From an uncultured Oscillospiraceae bacterium (GTDB lineage Bacteria > Bacillota > Clostridia > Oscillospirales > Oscillospiraceae), in assembly GCA_944387095.1 (NCBI GenBank), contig CALXDP010000006.1, forward strand, positions 38,081-102,080: 64,000 nt of DNA. The letters are read 5' to 3'. The translations under genes were made by a program, and so were the position numbers. Position 1 is the stretch's first letter. The number at the start of each line of letters is the position of its first letter. Below are positions 496 through 64,000 of the stretch, one piece after another. The notes under the pieces were generated by a model. The model was not told where the DNA came from and searched no databases. It saw only the letters and a program-made list of their open reading frames with translations.

Positions 496-1445
496 TCCAG
501 CACCTCCACCCGGGCACAGCGGGTTGTCCCACGCCGCTCCAACACCACCGCCCGGCGGAACACGCCAACATCCATCAGGGAGCGGTATACCGGCCTGCGG
601 CGCAGATCGGCTACACTGCCCCCATGGGCGGTGGCCAACAGGGCCACTCCGCACCCCGCCGCCTCTTCCATGGCCTTGACGTCTACCGGGTGGGTGATCT
701 CATCGGCGGCCAGCACCTGGGGGTTCATCCCCCGCAACAGGATGGTCAGCCCCTGAGCTTTCCGGCAGCCGTCCAGCACGTCAGTGTGCCGTCCCACGTC
801 AAACTGAGGCACACCCTGCCACAGGGCGGCCACCTCCCCCCGCTCGTCCGCCACTCCAACCCGAAGGGGCGGACCGCCCACGCCGTCGGAAAGGCGGCGC
901 ACCAGCTCCCGCAACAGGGTGGTCTTACCCGCCCCCGGAGGCGCTAAAATCAGTGTACTGAGTATGCCGTCCTCCGTCCGCAGCTGACCCAGCAACTCCC
1001 CGGCCTGTCCCTCCGCCGGGCAGGCCACCCGTAGGGCCAGCGACGTGAGATAACGCAGGGTGGTGATCTCTTCCCCATGGCGGGCCACCGTGCCGCACAG
1101 CCCAATTCGGTGGCCGCCCCGGAGGGTGACATAGCCGTTTTTCACCTGGTCCAGCACCGTGTGGGCGGAGGCCTGGCTGGCGTTTTCCAGCACTGTGCGC
1201 AGATCCTGGGCGGTCACCGGGGGACTGGCCGTCTCCCGCTCCGTGTTCCCCAGGTTCACCGTCATCGGAAAGCCCAGCCGCAGCCGCAGCTCCTCCGCCG
1301 TTCCCAGCTCATCCTGGGAAATCTCCCACAGCGCCCGGGCAAATGGCTCCGGCAATACCCCGGCAGCCTGGCTCAGCGCCGCCAGCCGCCCGCGCCCTGG
1401 CGGCGCCCCGTCTCCTCTGGTCCTCTCCGTTACCGCGTCTTGCAT
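492..1445 (-). CDS. spoIIIAA: Stage III sporulation protein AA, ATPase of the SpoIIIA channel
   Basis: A 317-residue secretion-type ATPase. A Walker A motif (APPGAGKTTLLREL) sits near residue 155, followed by a Walker B-like VADERGEV and a conserved AHG stretch near the C-terminus (LLATAHGGS). It acts in the mother cell during engulfment and is thought to energise the SpoIIIA-SpoIIQ channel. I start it at the ATG at 1445, preceded by GGAGGAGATAAC; the longer open frame up to 1514 has no ribosome site and runs into the presumed leader. It overlaps spoIIIAB by 4 bases. A sigma-E type promoter lies 95-123 bases upstream, as expected for mother-cell expression. Confidence 0.95.
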   Translation of the reverse strand: MQDAVTERTRGDGAPPGRGRLAALSQAAGVLPEPFARALWEISQDELGTAEELRLRLGFPMTVNLGNTERETASPPVTAQDLRTVLENASQASAHTVLDQVKNGYVTLRGGHRIGLCGTVARHGEEITTLRYLTSLALRVACPAEGQAGELLGQLRTEDGILSTLILAPPGAGKTTLLRELVRRLSDGVGGPPLRVGVADERGEVAALWQGVPQFDVGRHTDVLDGCRKAQGLTILLRGMNPQVLAADEITHPVDVKAMEEAAGCGVALLATAHGGSVADLRRRPVYRSLMDVGVFRRAVVLERRGTTRCARVEVLE

Positions 1446-1539
1446 GTTATCTCCTCCGGCCAGACGGCCTCTGTACAAATTGGTTTGGGCCAGGCTCCCG
1501 CCCGCTCCTCCCACCGGGCCTGTCCCTCATGACGTCACC

Positions 1540-1568
1540 ATTCTATGAGGGCGTGTCCCAGAATATTC
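1540..1568 (-). promoter_or_regulatory. Sigma-E type promoter of spoIIIAA
   Basis: On the minus strand the sequence reads GAATATT, 14 bases, CATAGAAT. This matches the known sigma-E pattern (ATATT at -35, CATAnnAT at -10, 14-15 apart) almost perfectly. It would give a leader of about 85 bases before the spoIIIAA ATG. The match is seen directly; its use is inferred from gene function. Confidence 0.75.
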
Positions 1569-1823
1569 CGGCTTATCCCCAATCTTATATTTTCCGGGCT
1601 GTCTGCTCCGCTCCCCCGCGCTGCCCACAGGCAGAAAAAGGAAGGGGACGGGCCATCTGCGCCTGGAGACCGCCCAGCAGCACCTCGATGCCGGCACCCC
1701 TTCCCCCGTGACAGAGACCGTCCAAACCCTGCCAGCTTGGGCCAGAAATGCCGCCAGCCAGAAATTTGGCTGTCCTTCCAGGTGGCACAGGGAATCTTTC
1801 CATATCCTGGCGTCTTCCCCGCC

Positions 1824-1878
1824 TTGACAGAATGGGGAAATGGTCTATAATGAAACATACAGATACCCCGTATGGTAT
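1824..1878 (+). promoter_or_regulatory. Promoter and possible operator of the csoR-like gene
   Basis: TTGACA (1824-1829), 16 bases, TATAAT (1846-1851). Just downstream ATACC-N6-GGTAT (1863-1878) has the same outer half-sites and the same 6-base gap as the stronger inverted repeat at 2269-2290 before the ATPase gene. This suggests that the repressor controls itself and the pump. From about 1570 to 1820 I see nothing else. Confidence 0.6.
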
Positions 1879-1891
1879 GGGAGGTCACAGT

Positions 1892-2164
1892 ATGAGACAA
1901 TGCATGGACGCGGAAAACCTTCACCGACGGCTGAGAAAGATTATCGGTCAGGTGCAGGCCATTGACCGAATGGTGGACGAGGATGTCCCCTGCGAAGACA
2001 TGTTGCTACAGATCAACGCCGCCAAGGCCGCCCTCCACAAAGCGGGCCAGGTGGTGCTGGAAGGACACATCCGCCACTGTGTCCGGGATGGGATTGAGCA
2101 TGGAGATGCGGAAAAGACCATTGAGAGCTTCACCAAGGCGATGGATCGGTTCGCCAATATATGA
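1892..2164 (+). CDS. csoR: CsoR-family metal-sensing repressor
   Basis: A 90-residue all-helical DUF156 protein. The three Cu(I) ligands of CsoR can be placed by alignment to the Bacillus protein: Cys in VPCEDML, and His and Cys four residues apart in EGHIRHCV. The persulfide sensor CstR lacks that His, and FrmR uses a different set, so copper sensing is the best guess. The start at 1892 has GGGAGGTC in front; the longer open frame upstream runs through the promoter. It is followed by its own promoter-operator region and a P1B ATPase, the usual partner of CsoR. Confidence 0.9.
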   Translation: MRQCMDAENLHRRLRKIIGQVQAIDRMVDEDVPCEDMLLQINAAKAALHKAGQVVLEGHIRHCVRDGIEHGDAEKTIESFTKAMDRFANI

Positions 2165-2239
2165 TCTAATCCGGGGGCCAATGCCCCCGGACCTTTTTGC
2201 ACTGTTTCTGCCTGGTTTGTTTTCCTCTTCCCCCCGGCC

Positions 2240-2290
2240 TTGACAGAGCTCCTTCTCTCCTCTATAATATACCTATACCCCCATAGGTAT
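2240..2290 (+). promoter_or_regulatory. Promoter and CsoR-type operator of the P1B ATPase gene
   Basis: A consensus promoter, TTGACA (2240-2245), 17 bases, TATAAT (2263-2268), is followed immediately by a perfect inverted repeat ATACCTAT-N6-ATAGGTAT (2269-2290) with a C-tract in the centre. A repressor bound here would cover the transcription start. C/G-tract dyads of this kind are typical CsoR sites. Confidence 0.8.
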
Positions 2291-2307
2291 TAAAAGGAGG
2301 TCTCACA

Positions 2308-4203
2308 ATGAAAGCCATCATGGAAAAGCTGGAGGCTCTGCTGGAAGTGGGCGGCGTCAAGAAGGACATCGTCTTGCTTGTCCTGTCCGGCCTGTCTCTG
2401 CTGATCAGTATTTTTGACATACTCCCCCTTCCCTTTGACGCAGCCTGGGTGGCCATCCTTCTGTGCGGTGTGCCCATCATTCTGGAGGCGGTCATCGGCC
2501 TGGTCACCGCCTTTGACATCAAAGCGGATGTGCTGGTGTCCATGGCGTTGATCGCCTCGGTGTGCATCGGGGAGGATTTCGCCGCGGGCGAGGTGGCCTT
2601 TATCATGCAGCTGGGCGCGCTGCTGGAGGAGCTCACCGTGGCCCGAGCCCGTGCTGGTATCGAGAAGCTGGTCCATCTGACCCCCCAGACAGCCCGGGTC
2701 CTCTCCGACGGCGGGGAACGGATCGTTCCCGCCGGGGAGGTGCGCATCGGCGATCGGCTCCGGGTGCTGCCCGGGGAGACTGTCCCCGTGGACGGGAGGA
2801 TCCTCACCGGGCAGACCTCCATCAACCAGGCGGTGATCACCGGGGAGCCGCTCCCGGTGGACAAGGGGCCTGGGGATGAGGTGTCCAGCGGTACGGTAAA
2901 CCAGTTCGGCGCCTTTGAGATGGAGGCCTCCAGAGTGGGGGAGGACAGCTGCGTGCAGCGCATGATCCGCCTGGTTCAGTCTGTGGATGCGGGCAAGGCC
3001 AAAATCGTGGGGCTGGCCGACCGCTGGGCCACCTGGGTGGTGGCCATCGCCCTGGCCGCCGCCGCTCTCACCTGGATCTTCAGCGGCCAGATCATCCGGG
3101 CAGTCACCATCCTGGTGGTCTTCTGTCCCTGCGCCCTGGTGCTGGCCACTCCCACCGCCATCATGGCCGCCATTGGCAACGCCACCCGTCACGGTTTTCT
3201 GGTGCGAGAGGGCGACGCGCTGGAGCGACTGGCCAAGGTGGGTAAGATCACCTTTGACAAAACCGGCACCTTGACCTACGGCAAGCCCAGGGTGGCGGCG
3301 GTGCGCAGCATCCTGCCCGGGCTGGACGACGGGGCTCTGCTGGCCATGGTGGCAGCGGCGGAGCAGTTTTCCGAGCATCCCCTGGGCAAGGCCGTGGCAG
3401 CCAGCTATCAGGCGACCGGAACCCCTCTCTCCTCCGCCTCCGATTTCCGTATGATCCCGGGAGAGGGGGTGCGGGCCAGCGTGGGCGGCAGGGTTGTTCT
3501 GGCGGGGAATGAAAAGCTGCTGGCCGCCTTCGGGCTGGCTGTACCCCAGGCCGTCCGGCAGGAGCTGGAGGACTATCTCGCCCAGGGCTGTACCGTCATC
3601 CTCACCGGGGTGGATGGGGCCTTTGCCGGATACCTGGCCCTGTCCGACACCCTGCGCCCGGACAGCGCCCAAACCATCAGCCAGCTCGCCCGCCTTGGGG
3701 TACAGCCGGTGCTGCTCACCGGGGATCACCGCAGCGCGGCGGATACCATCGGCAGGCAGCTGCACGTTCCCGAGATCCACGCAGATTGTCTGCCGGAGGA
3801 TAAGCTGCGCTATCTGGAGCAGTGTCAGAGGGACGGGCAGAAGGTGTGCATGATCGGAGACGGAGTCAACGACGCCCCGGCGCTGAAAAAAGCCAATGTG
3901 GGCATCGCCATGGGGGCCGCGGGAAGCGACATTGCCGCCGATGCGGCCGACATCGTCCTGGTGGATGACGAGGTCCGGGAACTGTCCCACCTGTTCGCCC
4001 TGTCCCGGCGCATGATGACCACCATCAAGCTCAACCTTACCTTCTCCATGGCGCTCAACTTCCTGGCCATCGCCCTGGCCGTCCCCGGCATTCTCAACCC
4101 TGTGGTGGGTGCACTGGTCCATAACGCCGGCTCGGTGGTGGTCATCGTCCATTCCGCCCTGCTGCTGCGCTGGCGCCGGGGCGGCAAGGACGCCCCGGCC
4201 TGA
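2308..4203 (+). CDS. P1B-type heavy-metal-transporting ATPase
   Basis: 631 residues. The phosphorylation site DKTGTLT is near residue 316, the membrane metal site CPC (FCPCALVLATP) near 272, TGE in the actuator domain (VITGEPLP) and GDGVNDAP near 516, so all catalytic parts are present. There is no N-terminal HMA or His-rich metal-binding domain; the protein begins with a short amphipathic stretch and goes into the membrane. The last helices carry HNAGSVVVIVHS, not the MxxSS motif of copper exporters of the CopA class. The CsoR gene and operator in front argue for copper, but the transported ion is not settled by the sequence. It is efflux-like by context. Confidence 0.93.
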   Translation: MKAIMEKLEALLEVGGVKKDIVLLVLSGLSLLISIFDILPLPFDAAWVAILLCGVPIILEAVIGLVTAFDIKADVLVSMALIASVCIGEDFAAGEVAFIMQLGALLEELTVARARAGIEKLVHLTPQTARVLSDGGERIVPAGEVRIGDRLRVLPGETVPVDGRILTGQTSINQAVITGEPLPVDKGPGDEVSSGTVNQFGAFEMEASRVGEDSCVQRMIRLVQSVDAGKAKIVGLADRWATWVVAIALAAAALTWIFSGQIIRAVTILVVFCPCALVLATPTAIMAAIGNATRHGFLVREGDALERLAKVGKITFDKTGTLTYGKPRVAAVRSILPGLDDGALLAMVAAAEQFSEHPLGKAVAASYQATGTPLSSASDFRMIPGEGVRASVGGRVVLAGNEKLLAAFGLAVPQAVRQELEDYLAQGCTVILTGVDGAFAGYLALSDTLRPDSAQTISQLARLGVQPVLLTGDHRSAADTIGRQLHVPEIHADCLPEDKLRYLEQCQRDGQKVCMIGDGVNDAPALKKANVGIAMGAAGSDIAADAADIVLVDDEVRELSHLFALSRRMMTTIKLNLTFSMALNFLAIALAVPGILNPVVGALVHNAGSVVVIVHSALLLRWRRGGKDAPA

Positions 4204-58631: not shown

Positions 58632-59582
58632 GTGAACGTCACCATCCTTCTCATCCGGCTCCTGGTCCTGGCGGTCATCTTTGTCAATGGATGGACAGAT
58701 GCGCCCAATGCCATCGCCACCGCGGTGGGCTCGGGGGCCATGGGATTTCGGCGGGCGGCAGCCTTGGCCGCCGTGTGCAACTTTGCCGGGGCCGCTCTGG
58801 CCTGCCTGCTCTTCCCCGCAGTGGCCGCCACCGTGGGCAGCCTGGTGACCTTTCCCCATCCTCAGGCCGCCCTCACCGCCCTGTGTGCCGCCCTGCTGGC
58901 CATTGTGATCTGGGCAGTTGCCGCCTGGCGCTTTGGCCTGCCCACCAGCGAGAGCCATGCCCTGCTGGCCGGTCTGTCTGGGGCGGCGCTGGCCCTGGGG
59001 GGCTCTGGCGCAGCCCTTAACGGGGCTGCCTGGGCCCGCACTCTGGCCGGTCTGGCCCTGTCCCTGCCCGCCGGGGCGCTGGCTGCCCGGGCCTGCCGGT
59101 GCTGGCTGAACCGCCACACCTGCAATGCCATCGCCTGGCAGCGCCGGGCTGCGGGGGTCATGGCCCTGCTCCACGGGGTCCAGGACGGGCAGAAGTTTCT
59201 GGCGCTGATGCTCATGGCAGACGACCTTGGAGGCGCAGATCCGTCTCCCGCCCTCCCCCTATTGATCCTGACCGCCTTCATGATGGCGGCAGGCACCGCC
59301 CTAGGCGGACGCCCCATTGTGGAAAAGGTTGGTTCCCAGCTGGCCGTGCTGACCCCGAAAGAAGGACTGGCTGCTGACGCGGGGGCGGGCCTTGTGCTGG
59401 CGGCTGGCGCTGCCCTGGGTCTACCCCTGTCCACCACTCATGTGAAGGTGGCGGCGGTATGCGGCGCAGGCCGCCAGCCAAACCTGCGCGCGGCAGGACA
59501 GATTGCCGGCGCCTGGCTGCTCACCTTCCCCTGCTGCGGGGCTTTATCCTTCGCTCTGGCCCGGCTGATGCTGGCCGGCTAG
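58632..59582 (+). CDS. Inorganic phosphate transporter, PiT family
   Basis: 316 residues with about ten membrane segments. The two PiT signatures are recognisable: NGWTDAPNAIATAVGSGAM at residues 19-37 and a weaker second copy, STTHVKVAAVCGAG, near the end. GLPTSESHALLAGLSGAAL lies near 98. It imports phosphate with protons or sodium. It begins with GTG 58632 behind AAGGGGG. Bases 58459-58631 hold no other gene. Confidence 0.92.
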   Translation: MNVTILLIRLLVLAVIFVNGWTDAPNAIATAVGSGAMGFRRAAALAAVCNFAGAALACLLFPAVAATVGSLVTFPHPQAALTALCAALLAIVIWAVAAWRFGLPTSESHALLAGLSGAALALGGSGAALNGAAWARTLAGLALSLPAGALAARACRCWLNRHTCNAIAWQRRAAGVMALLHGVQDGQKFLALMLMADDLGGADPSPALPLLILTAFMMAAGTALGGRPIVEKVGSQLAVLTPKEGLAADAGAGLVLAAGAALGLPLSTTHVKVAAVCGAGRQPNLRAAGQIAGAWLLTFPCCGALSFALARLMLAG

Positions 59583-59715: not shown

Positions 59716-59844
59716 TCAGAGGCGGGGTGGTTTGCCTTGTGCCAGCTCCTTTCTTTTCTGCCTCTCCTGGGCCTCGCTGCACTCATAGGCCTCCTTCAGC
59801 TTCTCCAGGGCTTTCTTTTCAATGCGGGATACATAGCTGCGCGC
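59716..59844 (-). pseudogene. sigK: 3' fragment of sigK, interrupted
   Basis: The minus strand reads ARSYVSRIEKKALEKLKEAY then ECSEAQERQKRKELAQGKPPRL and TGA at 59716. This is the C-terminal end of sigma-K: Bacillus SigK has ISRSYVSRIEKRALMKMF followed by a Lys-rich tail. The match starts in the recognition helix of region 4.2 and stops at about 59844, where a TAG occurs and homology ends. Some 200 N-terminal residues are missing from the window. In many spore formers sigK is split by a skin element, and this fits one of its ends. A dead fragment is the alternative. Confidence 0.8.
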
Positions 59845-59937
59845 CTAATGTAAACGATGCCCGGAAAGCCTTGTGAGAGCAGGGCTTGTCCGGGCATCAG
59901 ATGTTTAAGAGTAGCACCGCGCTTATTGTAAGCGGCG
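59840..59937. repeat. Imperfect 17-bp direct repeats at the sigK breakpoint
   Basis: CGCGCCTAATGTAAACG (59840-59856) and CGCGCTTATTGTAAGCG (59918-59934) agree at 14 of 17 bases. The first sits exactly on the breakpoint. Between them is a hairpin with GATGCCCGG/CCGGGCATC arms (59856-59864, 59890-59898). They could be recombinase sites; bases 59938-60067 are AT-rich without a gene. Confidence 0.5.
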
Positions 59938-60067
59938 CGGAAAATTAAAATTTTGGATGATAAGCGGCCATTTATTGAAGTTATAAATCACCTTAATGTA
60001 TGCTATATCAATCAATTATAATCCTTACTTAAAATTTGAATTTAAAAATACGAGATAATTTGTTATA

Positions 60068-61738
60068 TCATTCGATAGAATTACTAGTTTCTTCATCTGT
60101 GGACACACATATCTGTGTCTCTACACCAAACACTTTCAGCCCAAGATGCTTGTCCACCAACTCTAATATATTTGCCGATAGCATTTTTGCTTTGTGATAG
60201 TCGCTTAAAGAAATTTTTCGGGTTAAAAGAAAATCCCCGAGATTCTTGTTTATGGAATCGGAGCCTAACTTAGCAGCAGAAACAAAACCATCTATCTGAG
60301 AAATTGCAGTTCTTATCTGTTCGTTTTCTCTCATTTCAGATTCTTGTATATTTATGTGCTTACAATAACGATTAAATGATGTTTTCAAAAAATACGCATC
60401 ACTTAGGAAATCCAATGCAGATGTTAATACATTTATCATTGAATTCACTTCAAGCGAACCTTCTTCCGCAGCTTTGACAACCGCTTTTGAATCATTTGAC
60501 ATTTTTTCGCTAAGAGAAGAAGTGTGTGCAACCAAAAGATTAATATATGAAAGTTCCTTGGTTTCATTAAATCCAATTGATTCTTCCGTTAATTTTTCCC
60601 TTGTAAGATGATAGTCAGATGAATTAATTACTAACTGATAGCAATCAATTCCTTTTTCTTGGCAAACATCCCAAAGTAGCTGTTTACAAATATCATCTAG
60701 GTTTAATCCCATGGTAATTGATTTAATAAACGGAGTATCTATAAATATTGGGGTATAGGGTTGCTCACCTGTATTAATTATGCGCCATTCGTCTTCGTAT
60801 TCCCAACATTTGTTTTTTGAAAGCATATACGAAAGAATAGCACTCATATCTGGTTCAACAGTCTTTAATTTACCAGATTCGTCCGTTTCAAATTTATCAA
60901 TACCAAGATCTCTAAGTGTTAATGTCGGGCGATCACATGAATATTTAACAGGATACATAAACCCTATAAACTTGTTCATTTTTTCAAAATCGTATTCCAC
61001 ACAAATACCTGAATAAGAGTTCGCATAATGCGCCCACATAAGTTGATTATCCCAGCCGCTTGCACTAAAACAAACCACAGTTAGCTTGGACAAAAACTCT
61101 TTTATAAAAGGAAGATAAATTTGATCTCTAACCTTCACCACTTTTTCTTCTAAAAGTTTTAGTGAATCTTCTATATTCAACACATCAATTATGGCTTTTT
61201 CTTCAATTTTGACATTTTTATAATCCTTGATGATTATTGAAAAAACAAAGAATAGTTGCTTATTATTAAAGTATTGTTTGATCTCAGACGGACACTTTCT
61301 GTATAGTTTGTCCACGTTACCAGCAATAAACTGTGGAAAATTATCAGGCGAAACATGCGAAATTACACTTTGCGTAAATATATATTTTTTTAACTTATTA
61401 AGTGCACCAATAAACTCAATAGTTTTTCCAATAACCCTATATTTCAGAATATTTTTCAAAATCAATATAACATTTTGATCCATTGACAGTTTGGCTTGTG
61501 AGAGTACTAAATCAATACATTCATCATAAATCTTCTCTGGAGAAAAACCAATCATTGAATCAAATGGATCATTCATTTGTAATGGTGTACGCGCATAAAC
61601 CTGTCCATGTCGAATATTTTCTATGTCATATATGGTTTCAGCATCTCTTCGACATGCCCTATATTGATAAAACAAATTTCCGGCTTTACCAATCTCAGCT
61701 TTCATTTTCTCAAAGGATATATTGCTTTGATTAGTCAT
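60068..61738 (-). CDS. DUF2971 domain protein, AT-rich gene
   Basis: 556 residues. The N-part has FYQYRACRRDAETIYDIENI and ARTPLQMNDPFDS, and the centre LTVVCFSASGWDNQLMWAHYAN, ICVEYDF and CWEYEDEWRII, the marks of DUF2971. About 180 further residues at the C-terminus are helical and of unknown type. DUF2971 proteins often sit in accessory and defence regions; their activity is not known. The gene is far more AT-rich than its neighbours, a sign of recent transfer. ATG behind GGAGGAAAATA. Divergent from the HTH-DUF3990 operon. Confidence 0.85.
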   Translation of the reverse strand: MTNQSNISFEKMKAEIGKAGNLFYQYRACRRDAETIYDIENIRHGQVYARTPLQMNDPFDSMIGFSPEKIYDECIDLVLSQAKLSMDQNVILILKNILKYRVIGKTIEFIGALNKLKKYIFTQSVISHVSPDNFPQFIAGNVDKLYRKCPSEIKQYFNNKQLFFVFSIIIKDYKNVKIEEKAIIDVLNIEDSLKLLEEKVVKVRDQIYLPFIKEFLSKLTVVCFSASGWDNQLMWAHYANSYSGICVEYDFEKMNKFIGFMYPVKYSCDRPTLTLRDLGIDKFETDESGKLKTVEPDMSAILSYMLSKNKCWEYEDEWRIINTGEQPYTPIFIDTPFIKSITMGLNLDDICKQLLWDVCQEKGIDCYQLVINSSDYHLTREKLTEESIGFNETKELSYINLLVAHTSSLSEKMSNDSKAVVKAAEEGSLEVNSMINVLTSALDFLSDAYFLKTSFNRYCKHINIQESEMRENEQIRTAISQIDGFVSAAKLGSDSINKNLGDFLLTRKISLSDYHKAKMLSANILELVDKHLGLKVFGVETQICVSTDEETSNSIE

Positions 61739-61813
61739 TATTTTCCTCCAATAAAATACTTAGTTCAACCGAATTGCTGTCATAAAAAATTTTTTAACTC
61801 TTGTATCAAATTA

Positions 61814-61887
61814 ATTATATCCTATCTCAACAACACCCGCAATCTTCTTTTCCAGGTGTTGTATTCTATATACACAAGTGTTATAAT
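61814..61887. promoter_or_regulatory. Divergent promoters with shared inverted repeat
   Basis: Minus promoter: TTGCGG (61837-61842), 17 bases, TATAAT (61814-61819). Plus promoter: TTGTAT (61859-61864), 17 bases, TATAAT (61882-61887). The inverted repeat CAACACC (61831-61837) / GGTGTTG (61855-61861) touches both -35 regions, so one repressor could control both genes. The HTH protein at 61926 is the obvious candidate. Confidence 0.65.
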
Positions 61888-61925
61888 AATAAAAATCAAA
61901 TGTTATATTTAAGGAGGTGACCCCT

Positions 61926-62774
61926 GTGAAAAGCCCGGACCAAATCAAAGAGATCCGCTCCCGTCTAAACTTAAGCCAATCTGAATTGGCCGAGAAGCTG
62001 GGCGTCAGCTTCGCCACAGTAAATCGTTGGGAAAAGGGGCACTGTGAGCCGTCGCAGATTGCTGTCAATGCAATCAAAAACCTTTGCGCAGAAAATAACA
62101 TCGACTTTTCCCAGTTGGAAGGTTCTGCTATCATTACCTCCAATGAAATCGTCACTCTTTATCACGGCTCCAAGTCTGGATTACATGGCCCTATTGCTCC
62201 CATCAGCCGGGACCGGTGTGACTTTGGTAAAGGCTTTTACATGGGCACAGAGCGGATGCAGCCCCTCACATTGATCTGCAATTATCCGGAGGGGAAACTC
62301 TACACTCTGCAAGTCGACTTGACCGGCCTCAAGATTCTCGATGTGGAAGTCGGCCTGGATTGGGCGCTGCTGATCGCCTTCAACCGGGGCAAACTGGAAA
62401 CGGTCAAAGGTTCCCGCATTTATCGGCAGTATGCCGCTATGGCAGATGGCTGCGATATGGTCATCGGGTACATCGCCAACGACCGCATGTTTGTGGTATT
62501 GGACCGCTTCTTCAATGGAGAAATCACGGATTTGGCTCTGATTAACAGTCTATCTGCCTTGAAACTGGGAAAACAGTATGTGGCTCTGACAGAAAGAGCG
62601 TGCAGCCAAATCAAAATTTTGGACGAGCAGCACATCTCTAAAGAAGATCGTGAAAGCCTAAAGATGGAGAGCGAGGCCAACCGCTCTAAGGGAATCGCCC
62701 TGGCAGATGAGATCTGCCGGAAATACAGGCGGGAGGGCCGCTTCTTCGATGAGATCTTGAAGGCAGGTGAATGA
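61926..62774 (+). CDS. HTH-DUF3990 protein, ADP-ribosyltransferase-like
   Basis: 282 residues from a GTG 8 bases behind AAGGAGG. Residues 1-65 are an XRE-type helix-turn-helix (IRSRLNLSQSELAEKLGVSF, TVNRWEKGHCEPS). Residues 78-230 match DUF3990: VTLYHGSKSGLHGPI, CDFGKGFYMGT and YIANDRMFVVLDRFFNG. The HGS and FGKGFYM motifs resemble the NAD-binding parts of ADP-ribosyltransferases. A DNA-binding domain fused to a toxin-like enzyme suggests a self-regulated toxin or effector. The next gene starts 1 base after its stop. Confidence 0.85.
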   Translation: MKSPDQIKEIRSRLNLSQSELAEKLGVSFATVNRWEKGHCEPSQIAVNAIKNLCAENNIDFSQLEGSAIITSNEIVTLYHGSKSGLHGPIAPISRDRCDFGKGFYMGTERMQPLTLICNYPEGKLYTLQVDLTGLKILDVEVGLDWALLIAFNRGKLETVKGSRIYRQYAAMADGCDMVIGYIANDRMFVVLDRFFNGEITDLALINSLSALKLGKQYVALTERACSQIKILDEQHISKEDRESLKMESEANRSKGIALADEICRKYRREGRFFDEILKAGE

Positions 62775-62775
62775 G

Positions 62776-63210
62776 ATGGCAAACCTGAGTTTGGAACAGC
62801 GGCAGCTCTGCGATATTCAGGGACGCCTGTTTGAACTGGCCCTGAAAAACGGATATGACTGTCCCATGTTTATTCAGGCCTTTATGAACAGCCGGACAGC
62901 CGCGGCGCTGGACGACACCTATGACCGCCTGCAGTGGGCTGGTGAGGAGTATATCTTGGAGGAACTGAACGACGAAGTGGGCGGACTGAAAAAAGCAGGC
63001 GCGCTCTATTCCGCCGAGGTGATGTACTGGGCTGGCTACACCTACCGCTATTGGCACTATTACACCGGCGAGAGCAGCAAGACCATTTTCCAGACTGCCG
63101 AAGCGGAGACCATGAACGACTGTTGGCTGGGTTTTCACACCTTTGATGTGGAAATGGCTATTGATGATTTGAAGGAACTCTACGCACAGCAGGCGCGCCG
63201 CGCAGACTGA
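62776..63210 (+). CDS. Unknown 144-aa protein in the DUF3990 operon
   Basis: 144 residues, helical, acidic, with many aromatic residues in the second half (YWAGYTYRYWHYYTGESSK). Two blocks stand out: FIQAFMNSRTAAALDDTYDRLQW and NDCWLGFHTFDVEMAIDDLKELY. I do not recognise a family; in other genomes DUF3990 genes sit by small proteins such as DUF3791, and this may fill that slot. The ATG at 62776 follows AGGTG and comes right after the stop of the DUF3990 gene, so translation is coupled. Antitoxin or adaptor is a guess. Confidence 0.7.
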   Translation: MANLSLEQRQLCDIQGRLFELALKNGYDCPMFIQAFMNSRTAAALDDTYDRLQWAGEEYILEELNDEVGGLKKAGALYSAEVMYWAGYTYRYWHYYTGESSKTIFQTAEAETMNDCWLGFHTFDVEMAIDDLKELYAQQARRAD

Positions 63211-63226
63211 AAGGGAGGCGAACACC

Positions 63227-63934
63227 CTGACACCTCAGCATATTTACTTGACTGGCGATACCCACGGCAGTTTTGACCGGATCTATACATTTTGTCAAAC
63301 GCAGCAAACCACCCGGCAAGATTTGCTGATTATCCTTGGGGACGCAGGGATCAATTATTACGGTTCCAAGAAAGACGCTCTGCTTAAGCAGGTGCTCTCT
63401 GAACTGCCGCTTACCATTTTCTGTATCCACGGAAATCACGAGCAGAGGCCTACGGCAAAGAAGGGCTATGAAGAACAACTCTTTTGCGGCGGAATAGTTC
63501 TCGTCCAGCCAGAATATCCCAATCTTCTGTTTGCCGTAGATGGCGAGGTCTATGACTTTCTGGGGAAAAACTGTCTCGCCATCGGCGGTGCTTACAGTGT
63601 GGACAAGGAATACCGATTGGCCCGGGGCTGGGGATGGTGGCCGGATGAGCAGCCTGACGAGACCATCAAGGCCAAGGTTGAATCTGTTCTGGAGAAGCGG
63701 AATTGGCAAGTAGATATCGTGCTCAGCCACACCTGTCCCCTCCGCTATGAGCCCACGGAAGTATTTTTGCCTTTTATTGACCAGAGCAAAGTAGATAAGA
63801 GCACTGAAAGCTGGCTAGGCCAGATCGAAAGCCGTCTACGCTATCAGCGATGGTACTGTGGGCACTACCATGTTACCAAGCAGATTGATGATCTGCGGTT
63901 TTTGTTCGAGGATTATTTGATACTGGGAGAATAG
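63227..63934 (+). CDS. Metallophosphoesterase in the DUF3990 operon, CTG start
   Basis: 235 residues. Calcineurin-like motifs are complete: GDTHGSFDRI, ILGDAGINYYG, IHGNHEQRP, LSHTCPLRYEP and YCGHYHVTKQ. The first motif lies so close to the start that the only good initiator is CTG 63227 (TPQHIYLTGDTHG), 8 bases behind GGGAGG; a TTG at 63248 would leave no first strand. The gene follows the 144-aa gene by 16 bases. It may remove or process nucleotide groups made by the DUF3990 enzyme, which is inference. Confidence 0.87.
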   Translation: MTPQHIYLTGDTHGSFDRIYTFCQTQQTTRQDLLIILGDAGINYYGSKKDALLKQVLSELPLTIFCIHGNHEQRPTAKKGYEEQLFCGGIVLVQPEYPNLLFAVDGEVYDFLGKNCLAIGGAYSVDKEYRLARGWGWWPDEQPDETIKAKVESVLEKRNWQVDIVLSHTCPLRYEPTEVFLPFIDQSKVDKSTESWLGQIESRLRYQRWYCGHYHVTKQIDDLRFLFEDYLILGE

Positions 63935-63955
63935 TTCCAGCCTTATAATATTGTA

Positions 63956-63996
63956 GCCGCCCGACGCATCTCATCCGATGCGCCGGGCGGCTTTTT
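63956..63996 (+). terminator. Terminator of the DUF3990 operon
   Basis: A 15-bp stem with one mismatch (63956-63970, 63977-63991), loop TCATCC, then TTTTT. It closes the three-gene unit before the window ends. Confidence 0.9.
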
Positions 63997-64000
63997 GCGT

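What the first reader, a model, noticed from the sequence alone, without database searches (positions are those of the whole stretch)
59716..64000. sigK appears cut by a skin-like element whose left end is in this window
The last 42 codons of a sigma-K gene lie on the minus strand and stop inside the recognition helix (SRSYVSR block). Beyond it composition and gene content change. In Bacillus and Clostridioides sigK is split by a skin element that is excised in the mother cell. Those known breaks are nearer the middle of the gene; a break in the final HTH would be a new position.
Basis: partly seen in the sequence, partly recalled or inferred. Interest (0 to 1): 0.87.

Follow-up and report, generated by a model that had tools for sequence, protein, structure and literature searches.

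The report
Spore gene cut by several elements
A key spore-formation gene in this gut-type bacterium is interrupted inside its DNA-reading helix by a mobile element, and in its relatives the same gene can be broken into three or even four pieces by different elements, so several DNA cut-outs would be needed before the gene can work.

Summary
The window holds the last 39 codons of sigK (59716-59835, minus strand) beside a mobile-element end; the contig stops at the window end. An intact relative (G019) has sigK between the two genes that flank the pieces here. In this genome codons 1-66 lie on another contig and end at a different junction, so sigK is cut at least twice; the middle piece and both recombinases are absent from the 93%-complete assembly. 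Relatives supply them. A large serine recombinase (RecB) abuts a sigK half at this site (codons Y210/V211, region 4.2) in 73 of the 80 best named loci. All 40 piece sets that I joined at the shared cores read through without a stop: ten had three pieces, one had four; three-piece genes lie on single contigs, including a one-contig genome. Three recombinase families (22-28% identical) serve codons ~66, ~111 and ~210. Site 1 lies near a published position and the codon-111 core resembles the published one; a codon-210 break and multiple skins in one sigK appeared in nothing I saw. In the window the element appears inverted. Excision, timing and cell type are inferred, not shown.

The parts
59716..59835 (-). 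sigK last exon: 39 codons (YVSRIEKKALEKLKEAYECSEAQERQKRKELAQGKPPRL) plus stop
   Evidence: sigK match; selection
59827..59835 (-). att core shared with intact sigK (TATGTATCC, minus strand); centre of symmetry GT in the Y-V codons
   Evidence: junctions compared by eye
59836..59856 (+). element half of the att site: spacer plus arm CTAATGTAAACG; an arm of this kind precedes 75 of 89 attR-like cores in relatives (overlapping loci)
59856..59898 (+). element-end hairpin (MFE -34.6 kcal/mol for 59846-59900, z -8.1); in relatives found next to the sigK 5' half
60068..61738 (-). cargo ORF, 556 aa, DUF2971 domain
61917..62774 (+). cargo ORF, 285 aa, HTH_3 plus DUF3990
62767..63210 (+). cargo ORF, 147 aa, weak DUF3791 match below Pfam cut-off
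63248..63934 (+). cargo ORF, 228 aa, calcineurin-like phosphoesterase
58632..59582 (+). host flank: PHO4-family (phosphate) transporter gene, which also borders intact sigK in relative G019

Best explanation
sigK of this organism is a germ-line-interrupted gene in three pieces. One skin-type element sits at codons 66/67 (site 1) and a second at codons 210/211 (site 2, region 4.2); the window holds the last piece and the recombinase-free end of the second element. Each element would be cut out by its own large serine recombinase acting on two hybrid att sites, leaving the codons joined in frame. By analogy with B. subtilis and C. [quoted passage not shown] Shown here: the pieces and junctions, open reading frames up to matching cores in relatives, recombinases beside the junctions, and sequence conservation. 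Inferred: that excision happens, when, in which cell, and that this genome's missing middle piece and recombinases lie in an assembly gap.
For: Intact G019 has sigK between the same transporter and permease that border the two pieces here. Exons 1 and 3 of this genome are conserved against G041 (pN/pS 0.007/0.189 and 0.044/0.278). Exon 1 ends in a site-1 junction like those of G041, G131 and G361. RecB lies beside exon 3 in 45 of the 54 family genomes that carry it at 60% identity or more (G107 through its identical named copy). In the named collection 61 of 80 loci have exon 3 and 12 of 80 the 5' half next to RecB; this sample overlaps the first (19 of 30 top loci identical). 40 of 40 joined piece sets read through without a stop: 29 two-piece, 10 three-piece, 1 four-piece. 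Three pieces lie on one contig in G118 (one-contig genome), G275, Flavonifractor sp. An82 and Pseudoflavonifractor sp. 524-17. The window flank matches element ends beside the sigK 5' half in 41 of 48 loci hit.
Against: In this genome codons 67-209 and both recombinases are not found, so loss by deletion is not excluded; G004, 98% complete, lacks codons 1-206. The joins were cut at matching codons, so being in frame is by design; what they test is that every piece is open to a matching core, and only sets whose pieces my patterns recognised were joined. G041 is not broken at site 2, so part of the conservation may predate that insertion. No direct excision product was seen: the one joined attP (L236, found by eye; my attP pattern found none in any locus) lies on a contig with a uvrB-like ORF. 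No sigma-E-like promoter excess upstream of the RecB operon (0 of 67 strict, 2 of 67 loose against 1.4 in shuffles).
Confidence: 0.8

Rival explanations
1. In this genome sigK is a dead remnant: the elements moved in, the middle was lost, and the pieces are decaying.
For: Codons 67-209 are absent from the assembly, and only one partial Recombinase-domain match is found in it. In 7 of 54 RecB genomes no sigK 5' piece was found.
Against: Both remaining pieces are open and conserved. The assembly is 93% complete in 62 contigs and the window's contig runs out inside the element; the C10 piece lies 16.2 kb from that contig's end. In 40 of 40 joined sets from relatives the pieces are open.
Confidence: 0.13
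2. Assembly or binning artefact: the fragment is a chimeric contig end, not a true junction.
For: The contig ends 4.2 kb from the junction, and the genome is fragmented.
Against: The same junction with related element-end sequence occurs in many other genomes, including isolates and a one-contig genome.
Confidence: 0.03
3. The site-2 elements are ordinary integrating elements that use a conserved sigK stretch as a landing site and are not excised developmentally; hosts tolerate or lose sigK function.
For: Large serine recombinases commonly target conserved genes (general knowledge). Elements range from 2.4 kb (G312) to 103 kb (G221) with varied cargo. No sigma-E-like promoter signal was found.
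Against: Interrupted frames stay conserved across genera in exon 3 (pooled pN 0.24, pS 0.58) and upstream exons (0.22, 0.52), over the 226 pairs with pS below 0.62 among 39 sets; synonymous sites are near saturation, so this is a rough measure. It implies that the joined protein is used; precise excision is the simplest way.
Confidence: 0.12

Closest known systems
skin of Bacillus subtilis (sigK = spoIVCB + spoIIIC, recombinase SpoIVCA, RDF Skr)
   Same: Element inside sigK, large serine recombinase, short att core, in-frame rejoining. The relatives' codon-111 core (AAATG) resembles the published AATGA core (passages and one section of PMC10745906; passages of PMC6957869).
   Different: The window's break is at codon 210. 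RecB differs from the codon-111 recombinase (22-25% identity). No SpoIVCA sequence was compared. The same paper places AATGA-core insertions of the B. cereus group at nucleotide 423, which does not fit codon 111 by simple counting, so identity of the codon-111 site with the B. subtilis site is not established here.
skin-Cd of Clostridioides difficile (CD1231 recombinase, CD1234 RDF)
   Same: Interrupts sigK in a clostridium; excision controlled by a small RDF (passages of PMC5025042).
   Different: Inserted at a different site from B. subtilis, per the passages; the codon was not given in what I read, so identity with any site here is untested. One element is described.
Island IV in sigK of a B. 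cereus group strain (PMC10745906)
   Same: Reported at nucleotide 195 of sigK, about codon 65, near the site-1 position here; the sequences were not aligned.
   Different: Single element; its recombinase gene lies next to the 5' fragment, whereas RecA here lies next to the 3' part.
Alicyclobacillus phage MMB025 in sigK (PMC13141910)
   Same: Prophage in sigK with a four-base core TCTC (passages).
   Different: Position in the gene is not stated in the text I saw. TCTC can occur in Y-V-S-R codons (as in G015), so it might be near site 2; not tested.
TnpX/TndX-type large serine recombinases (TndX recalled)
   Same: RecB has Resolvase, Recombinase and zinc-ribbon domains; the best-scoring solved chain is TnpX.
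   Different: RecB lies beside a sigK half in 73 of 80 loci. In the phage collection 703 records match, all under 60% identity; the 20 listed have 26-37%.

Membership tests
skin (sigK-intervening element) | Lies inside the sigK coding sequence, with both halves kept | tested here: met
   Met in relatives on one contig (G118, G221, G321, G275, G108, G312). In the window genome only the first and last pieces are found
skin (sigK-intervening element) | Halves rejoin in frame at a short core shared by both junctions | tested here: met
   Met in relatives: 40 of 40 joined sets without internal stop, cut at matching codons. Not testable for the window genome, whose partner junctions are missing
skin (sigK-intervening element) | Carries its own large serine recombinase near one junction | tested here: met
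   Met in relatives: 45 of 54 with exon 3 plus 2 with the 5' half, and 73 of 80 named loci. Not found in the window genome, whose contigs end inside the elements
skin (sigK-intervening element) | Encodes a recombination directionality factor | tested here: inconclusive
   A conserved ORF of 34-78 aa upstream of recB in 60 of 69 loci is a candidate; examples have no Pfam or NCBIfam match
[quoted passage not shown]
   Needs cultures
prophage | Phage structural and packaging genes | tested here: inconclusive
   The smallest element measured (G312, 2.4 kb) has room only for a TspO-like ORF (label recalled), a 42-aa ORF and RecB; larger elements were not annotated for phage genes

The most novel reading that the evidence does not exclude
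In many gut Clostridia sigK is assembled like a multi-exon gene: up to three unrelated serine recombinases, each carried by its own element, must all act in the same mother cell to join up to four DNA pieces, so sigma-K is gated by a multi-key (AND) developmental lock, with one key cutting the promoter-recognition helix itself.
Probability: 0.65. Interest if true: 0.88.

Novelty: new variant of a known kind. Interest (0 to 1): 0.76.

Why it matters
Skin elements are textbook examples of programmed DNA excision, but the cases I read about have one element per sigK, and skin was called an exception in clostridia (passage in PMC5025042). Here a further insertion site with its own recombinase clade is found in several families of Clostridia, and single genes are cut two or three times. 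That makes the old question of why spore-formers keep sigK interrupted testable by comparison and by experiment in cultured isolates. It also means that surveys scoring sigK as missing or broken may misjudge spore-forming ability.

Tried and rejected
Looked for an intact or split sigK elsewhere in the genome: sigE, sigG, sigF, sigH, rpoD and ECF-like factors (assigned by reading the sequences) explain the other sigma-70 hits. Considered a chimeric contig end: rejected, because the junction recurs in other genomes. Considered that the L236 contig proves excision: withdrawn, because a uvrB-like ORF shares the contig; a stricter attP pattern found no match in any held locus. Searched for sigma-E promoters upstream of the RecB operon: nothing above block shuffles. 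Searched phages for RecB: 703 records, all under 60% identity. Viral contigs: 11 relatives; of the seven whose 3' side I read, two (L353, L354) show sigK exon 3, one (L352) ends in the att arm and core, two end at once, two are unrelated; four were not read. tRNA scan of 14 loci of the larger elements: none found. Three named loci (L281, L286, L214) were not joined because my patterns failed; one search shows their 5' parts open. The G211 break near codon 106 does not look like any of the three sites. In the class-wide search the seven best RecB relatives all abut a sigK half; of the other 13 loci one does (L339), ten do not and two were not scored. Earlier wrong reading: I first took the ARS residues as sigK; comparison with intact copies corrected this. 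The genome searches scored only three candidates per genome, so counts there are lower bounds. The blast database wrongly included eight protein rows, which could not match.
Full report
Observation. The window's minus strand carries the end of a sigma-K gene at 59716-59835. The frame is open upstream for three more codons (A-R-S), but comparison with intact copies shows that these belong to the element. The sequence shared with intact sigK begins with TATGTATCC, the Y-V-S codons of the region 4.2 recognition helix. On the intact sigK of relative G019 the Y and V are codons 210 and 211 of 252. GC drops from 0.58-0.70 to 0.30-0.34 beyond the junction, then returns to 0.51-0.52 from 62000. The window is G000:C6:38081-102080 and the contig ends there.

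This genome. No intact sigK was found in the assembly: of 12 sigma-70 region-2 hits none reads as sigK. A 252-residue sigK query finds only codons 1-68 on contig C10 (16217-16414 for codons 1-66) and the window piece, besides paralogues. In G019, sigK is intact and bordered by the same phosphate transporter that borders the window piece and the same permease that borders the C10 piece, so the DNA between is inserted. Exon 1 stops at a second junction (ATCATCAAGAA, then element sequence) like those of G041, G131 and G361. The gene is therefore cut at least twice. Codons 67-209 are missing, RecB is not found, and only one partial Recombinase-domain match exists. An assembly gap is likely but not proved. 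Against sister genome G041 both pieces are conserved (pN/pS 0.007/0.189 for exon 1, 0.044/0.278 for exon 3); G041 is not broken at site 2.

Site 2 across Clostridia. The codon-210 break occurs in genus members G004, G006 and G015, with a slightly different core in G015. In G004 and G015 a large serine recombinase ends just upstream of the sigK 3' piece; these two, called RecB here, are 61% identical. RecB at 60% identity or more is in 54 of 400 family genomes (61 passed E <= 1e-100; seven had only 37-40% relatives). Exon 3 lies directly downstream in 26 of the 30 best, in a 27th (L107) by its identical named copy L284, in 17 of 23 further places fetched (within 100 nt by the coordinates) and in G131: 45 of 54. 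In G300 and G212 RecB instead abuts the 5' half; the other seven were not resolved. In named genomes the scan found 171 relatives and kept the best 80. Of these, 61 have exon 3 next to RecB (54 by script, seven by reading) and 12 have the 5' half (11 by script, L279 by reading). One has a joined attP, two have the 5' half elsewhere in the locus, one is not next to sigK and three end at contig ends. The two samples overlap: 19 of the 30 best unnamed loci are identical to a named one. Named records include Flavonifractor sp. An82, Pseudoflavonifractor sp. 524-17, P. capillosus An827, Colidextribacter sp. OB.20, Flintibacter muris DSM 110149, Butyricicoccus pullicaecorum ET57 and Blautia wexlerae MSK.20.46, as the records are titled. 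In a class-wide sample of 391 genomes the seven best relatives, and eight of 20 loci in all, abut a sigK half, in five further families.

Junctions. The attP inferred from relatives has palindromic arms (such as CGTTTACATTAG ... CTAATGTAAACG) set 12 bases either side of a central GT; an arm of this kind precedes 75 of 89 attR-like cores in the held loci, some overlapping. The loci with RecB beside exon 3 have a hairpin end (CCCGGAAAGCC...GGCTTGTCCGGG, varying) at the 5' side where I read it. In the window the hairpin end is next to the 3' piece: the 100 bases beyond the core match element ends beside the sigK 5' half in 41 of 48 loci hit, some overlapping, and the hairpin folds at -34.6 kcal/mol, z -8.1. 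So the element here appears inverted, which explains why no recombinase is seen in the window; RecB is predicted beside the missing middle exon. I did not check that the other inverted loci carry the hairpin at their 3' side.

Several elements in one gene. Among the 54 RecB genomes, sigK upstream of site 2 was found in 47. It is unbroken in 26 and broken again in 21: at site 1 in eight, at codon 111 in nine, at both in three (G131, G287, G107), and at an odd position in one (G211). In several of these only one side of the extra break was listed, and in G287 and G107 the third of four pieces was not; the row list was cut, so counts are minima. Joining pieces at the cores gave an uninterrupted sigK frame in 40 of 40 sets: 29 of two pieces, ten of three, one of four (G131); no two sets are near-identical. 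The cuts were placed at matching codons, so being in frame is by design; the test is that each piece is open to a matching core. Three further sets could not be assembled by my patterns. In one-contig genome G118 the elements are about 10.9 and 21.8 kb; in Flavonifractor sp. An82 about 17 and 103 kb; in Pseudoflavonifractor sp. 524-17 about 18.5 and 31 kb. The recombinases at the three sites are 22-28% identical to one another. Within the window's own genus, of 32 genomes with a sigK 3' end, 18 are intact, six are broken at site 1, four at codon 111 and four at site 2, two of which (G000, G015) are broken at site 1 as well. Elements thus seem to come and go at fixed sites.

Candidate directionality factor. 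A short ORF (34-78 aa as called, mostly 40-50) with a shared pattern lies just upstream of recB, some copies overlapping it, in 60 of 69 loci tested. Examples have no Pfam or NCBIfam match. RDF genes usually lie near the integrase gene (passage in PMC6957869), so this is a reasonable candidate, untested. I found no sigma-E promoter signal upstream of it.

Prior work. From passages: skin in B. subtilis with core AATGA and insertions at nucleotides 195 and 423 in the B. cereus group (PMC10745906), skin-Cd at a different site (PMC5025042; PMC6957869), and a phage in Alicyclobacillus sigK with core TCTC (PMC13141910). Nucleotide 195 is near site 1. Nucleotide 423 with an AATGA core does not fit codon 111 by simple counting, so I leave open whether the codon-111 site is the B. 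subtilis site. PMC5595907, PMC4191935, PMC3789829, PMC10747680, PMC3533761 and PMC11536998 were seen in passages only. In ten searches of the open-access library, of which I saw listings with titles and abstract openings, some capped, nothing named two or more elements in one sigK or a break in region 4.2. Subscription papers, probably including the original C. difficile paper, and the C. perfringens phage paper were not available, so absence from print is not established.

Verdict. The finding is correct and understated. It is a new variant of a known kind: skin-type interruption at a further, apparently undescribed site, combined with other skins in the same gene. Excision and its developmental control are inferred from the known systems.

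Noticed in passing
L175 (G312:C13:61900-66300), element at about 1024-3410: A site-2 element of only 2.4 kb holding a TspO-like ORF (label recalled), a 42-aa ORF and RecB: perhaps near the minimum needed for a skin.
   Followed up: partly
L236 (CALWXU010000040.1) and L293 (G433:C61): Joined attP arms downstream of recB on a contig with a uvrB-like ORF, while sigK is intact elsewhere in the same genome; excised or relocated element.
   Followed up: partly
L323-L327 (G221:C1:262900-361900): The 103-kb insert in sigK of Flavonifractor sp. An82 has no tRNA and, by eye, many transporter-like and regulator-like ORFs, perhaps from repeated insertion.
   Followed up: partly
L195 (G211:C88:21200-22900): sigK broken near codon 106 by sequence with a repeated TTAGCACACAT motif, unlike any of the three sites.
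   Followed up: no
L142:12198-14297 (G118): The codon-111 recombinase frame runs without a stop into the following sigK exon, giving a 699-codon fused open frame.
   Followed up: no
L022 and L030 (G005, G002): sigK 3' parts beginning at the site-1 position but without a RecA match in the 1.5-kb flank held, so perhaps another recombinase uses site 1.
   Followed up: no
L279 (JAAVHN010000004.1): The sigK 5' half next to an inverted RecB itself begins at the codon-111 site (ESIANEILM), so this gene too looks multiply split.
   Followed up: no
L071:1-16210 (G000:C10): DNA beyond exon 1 in this genome carries transporter-like and reductase-like ORFs by eye, so the site-1 element seems to hold metabolic cargo.
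   Followed up: no
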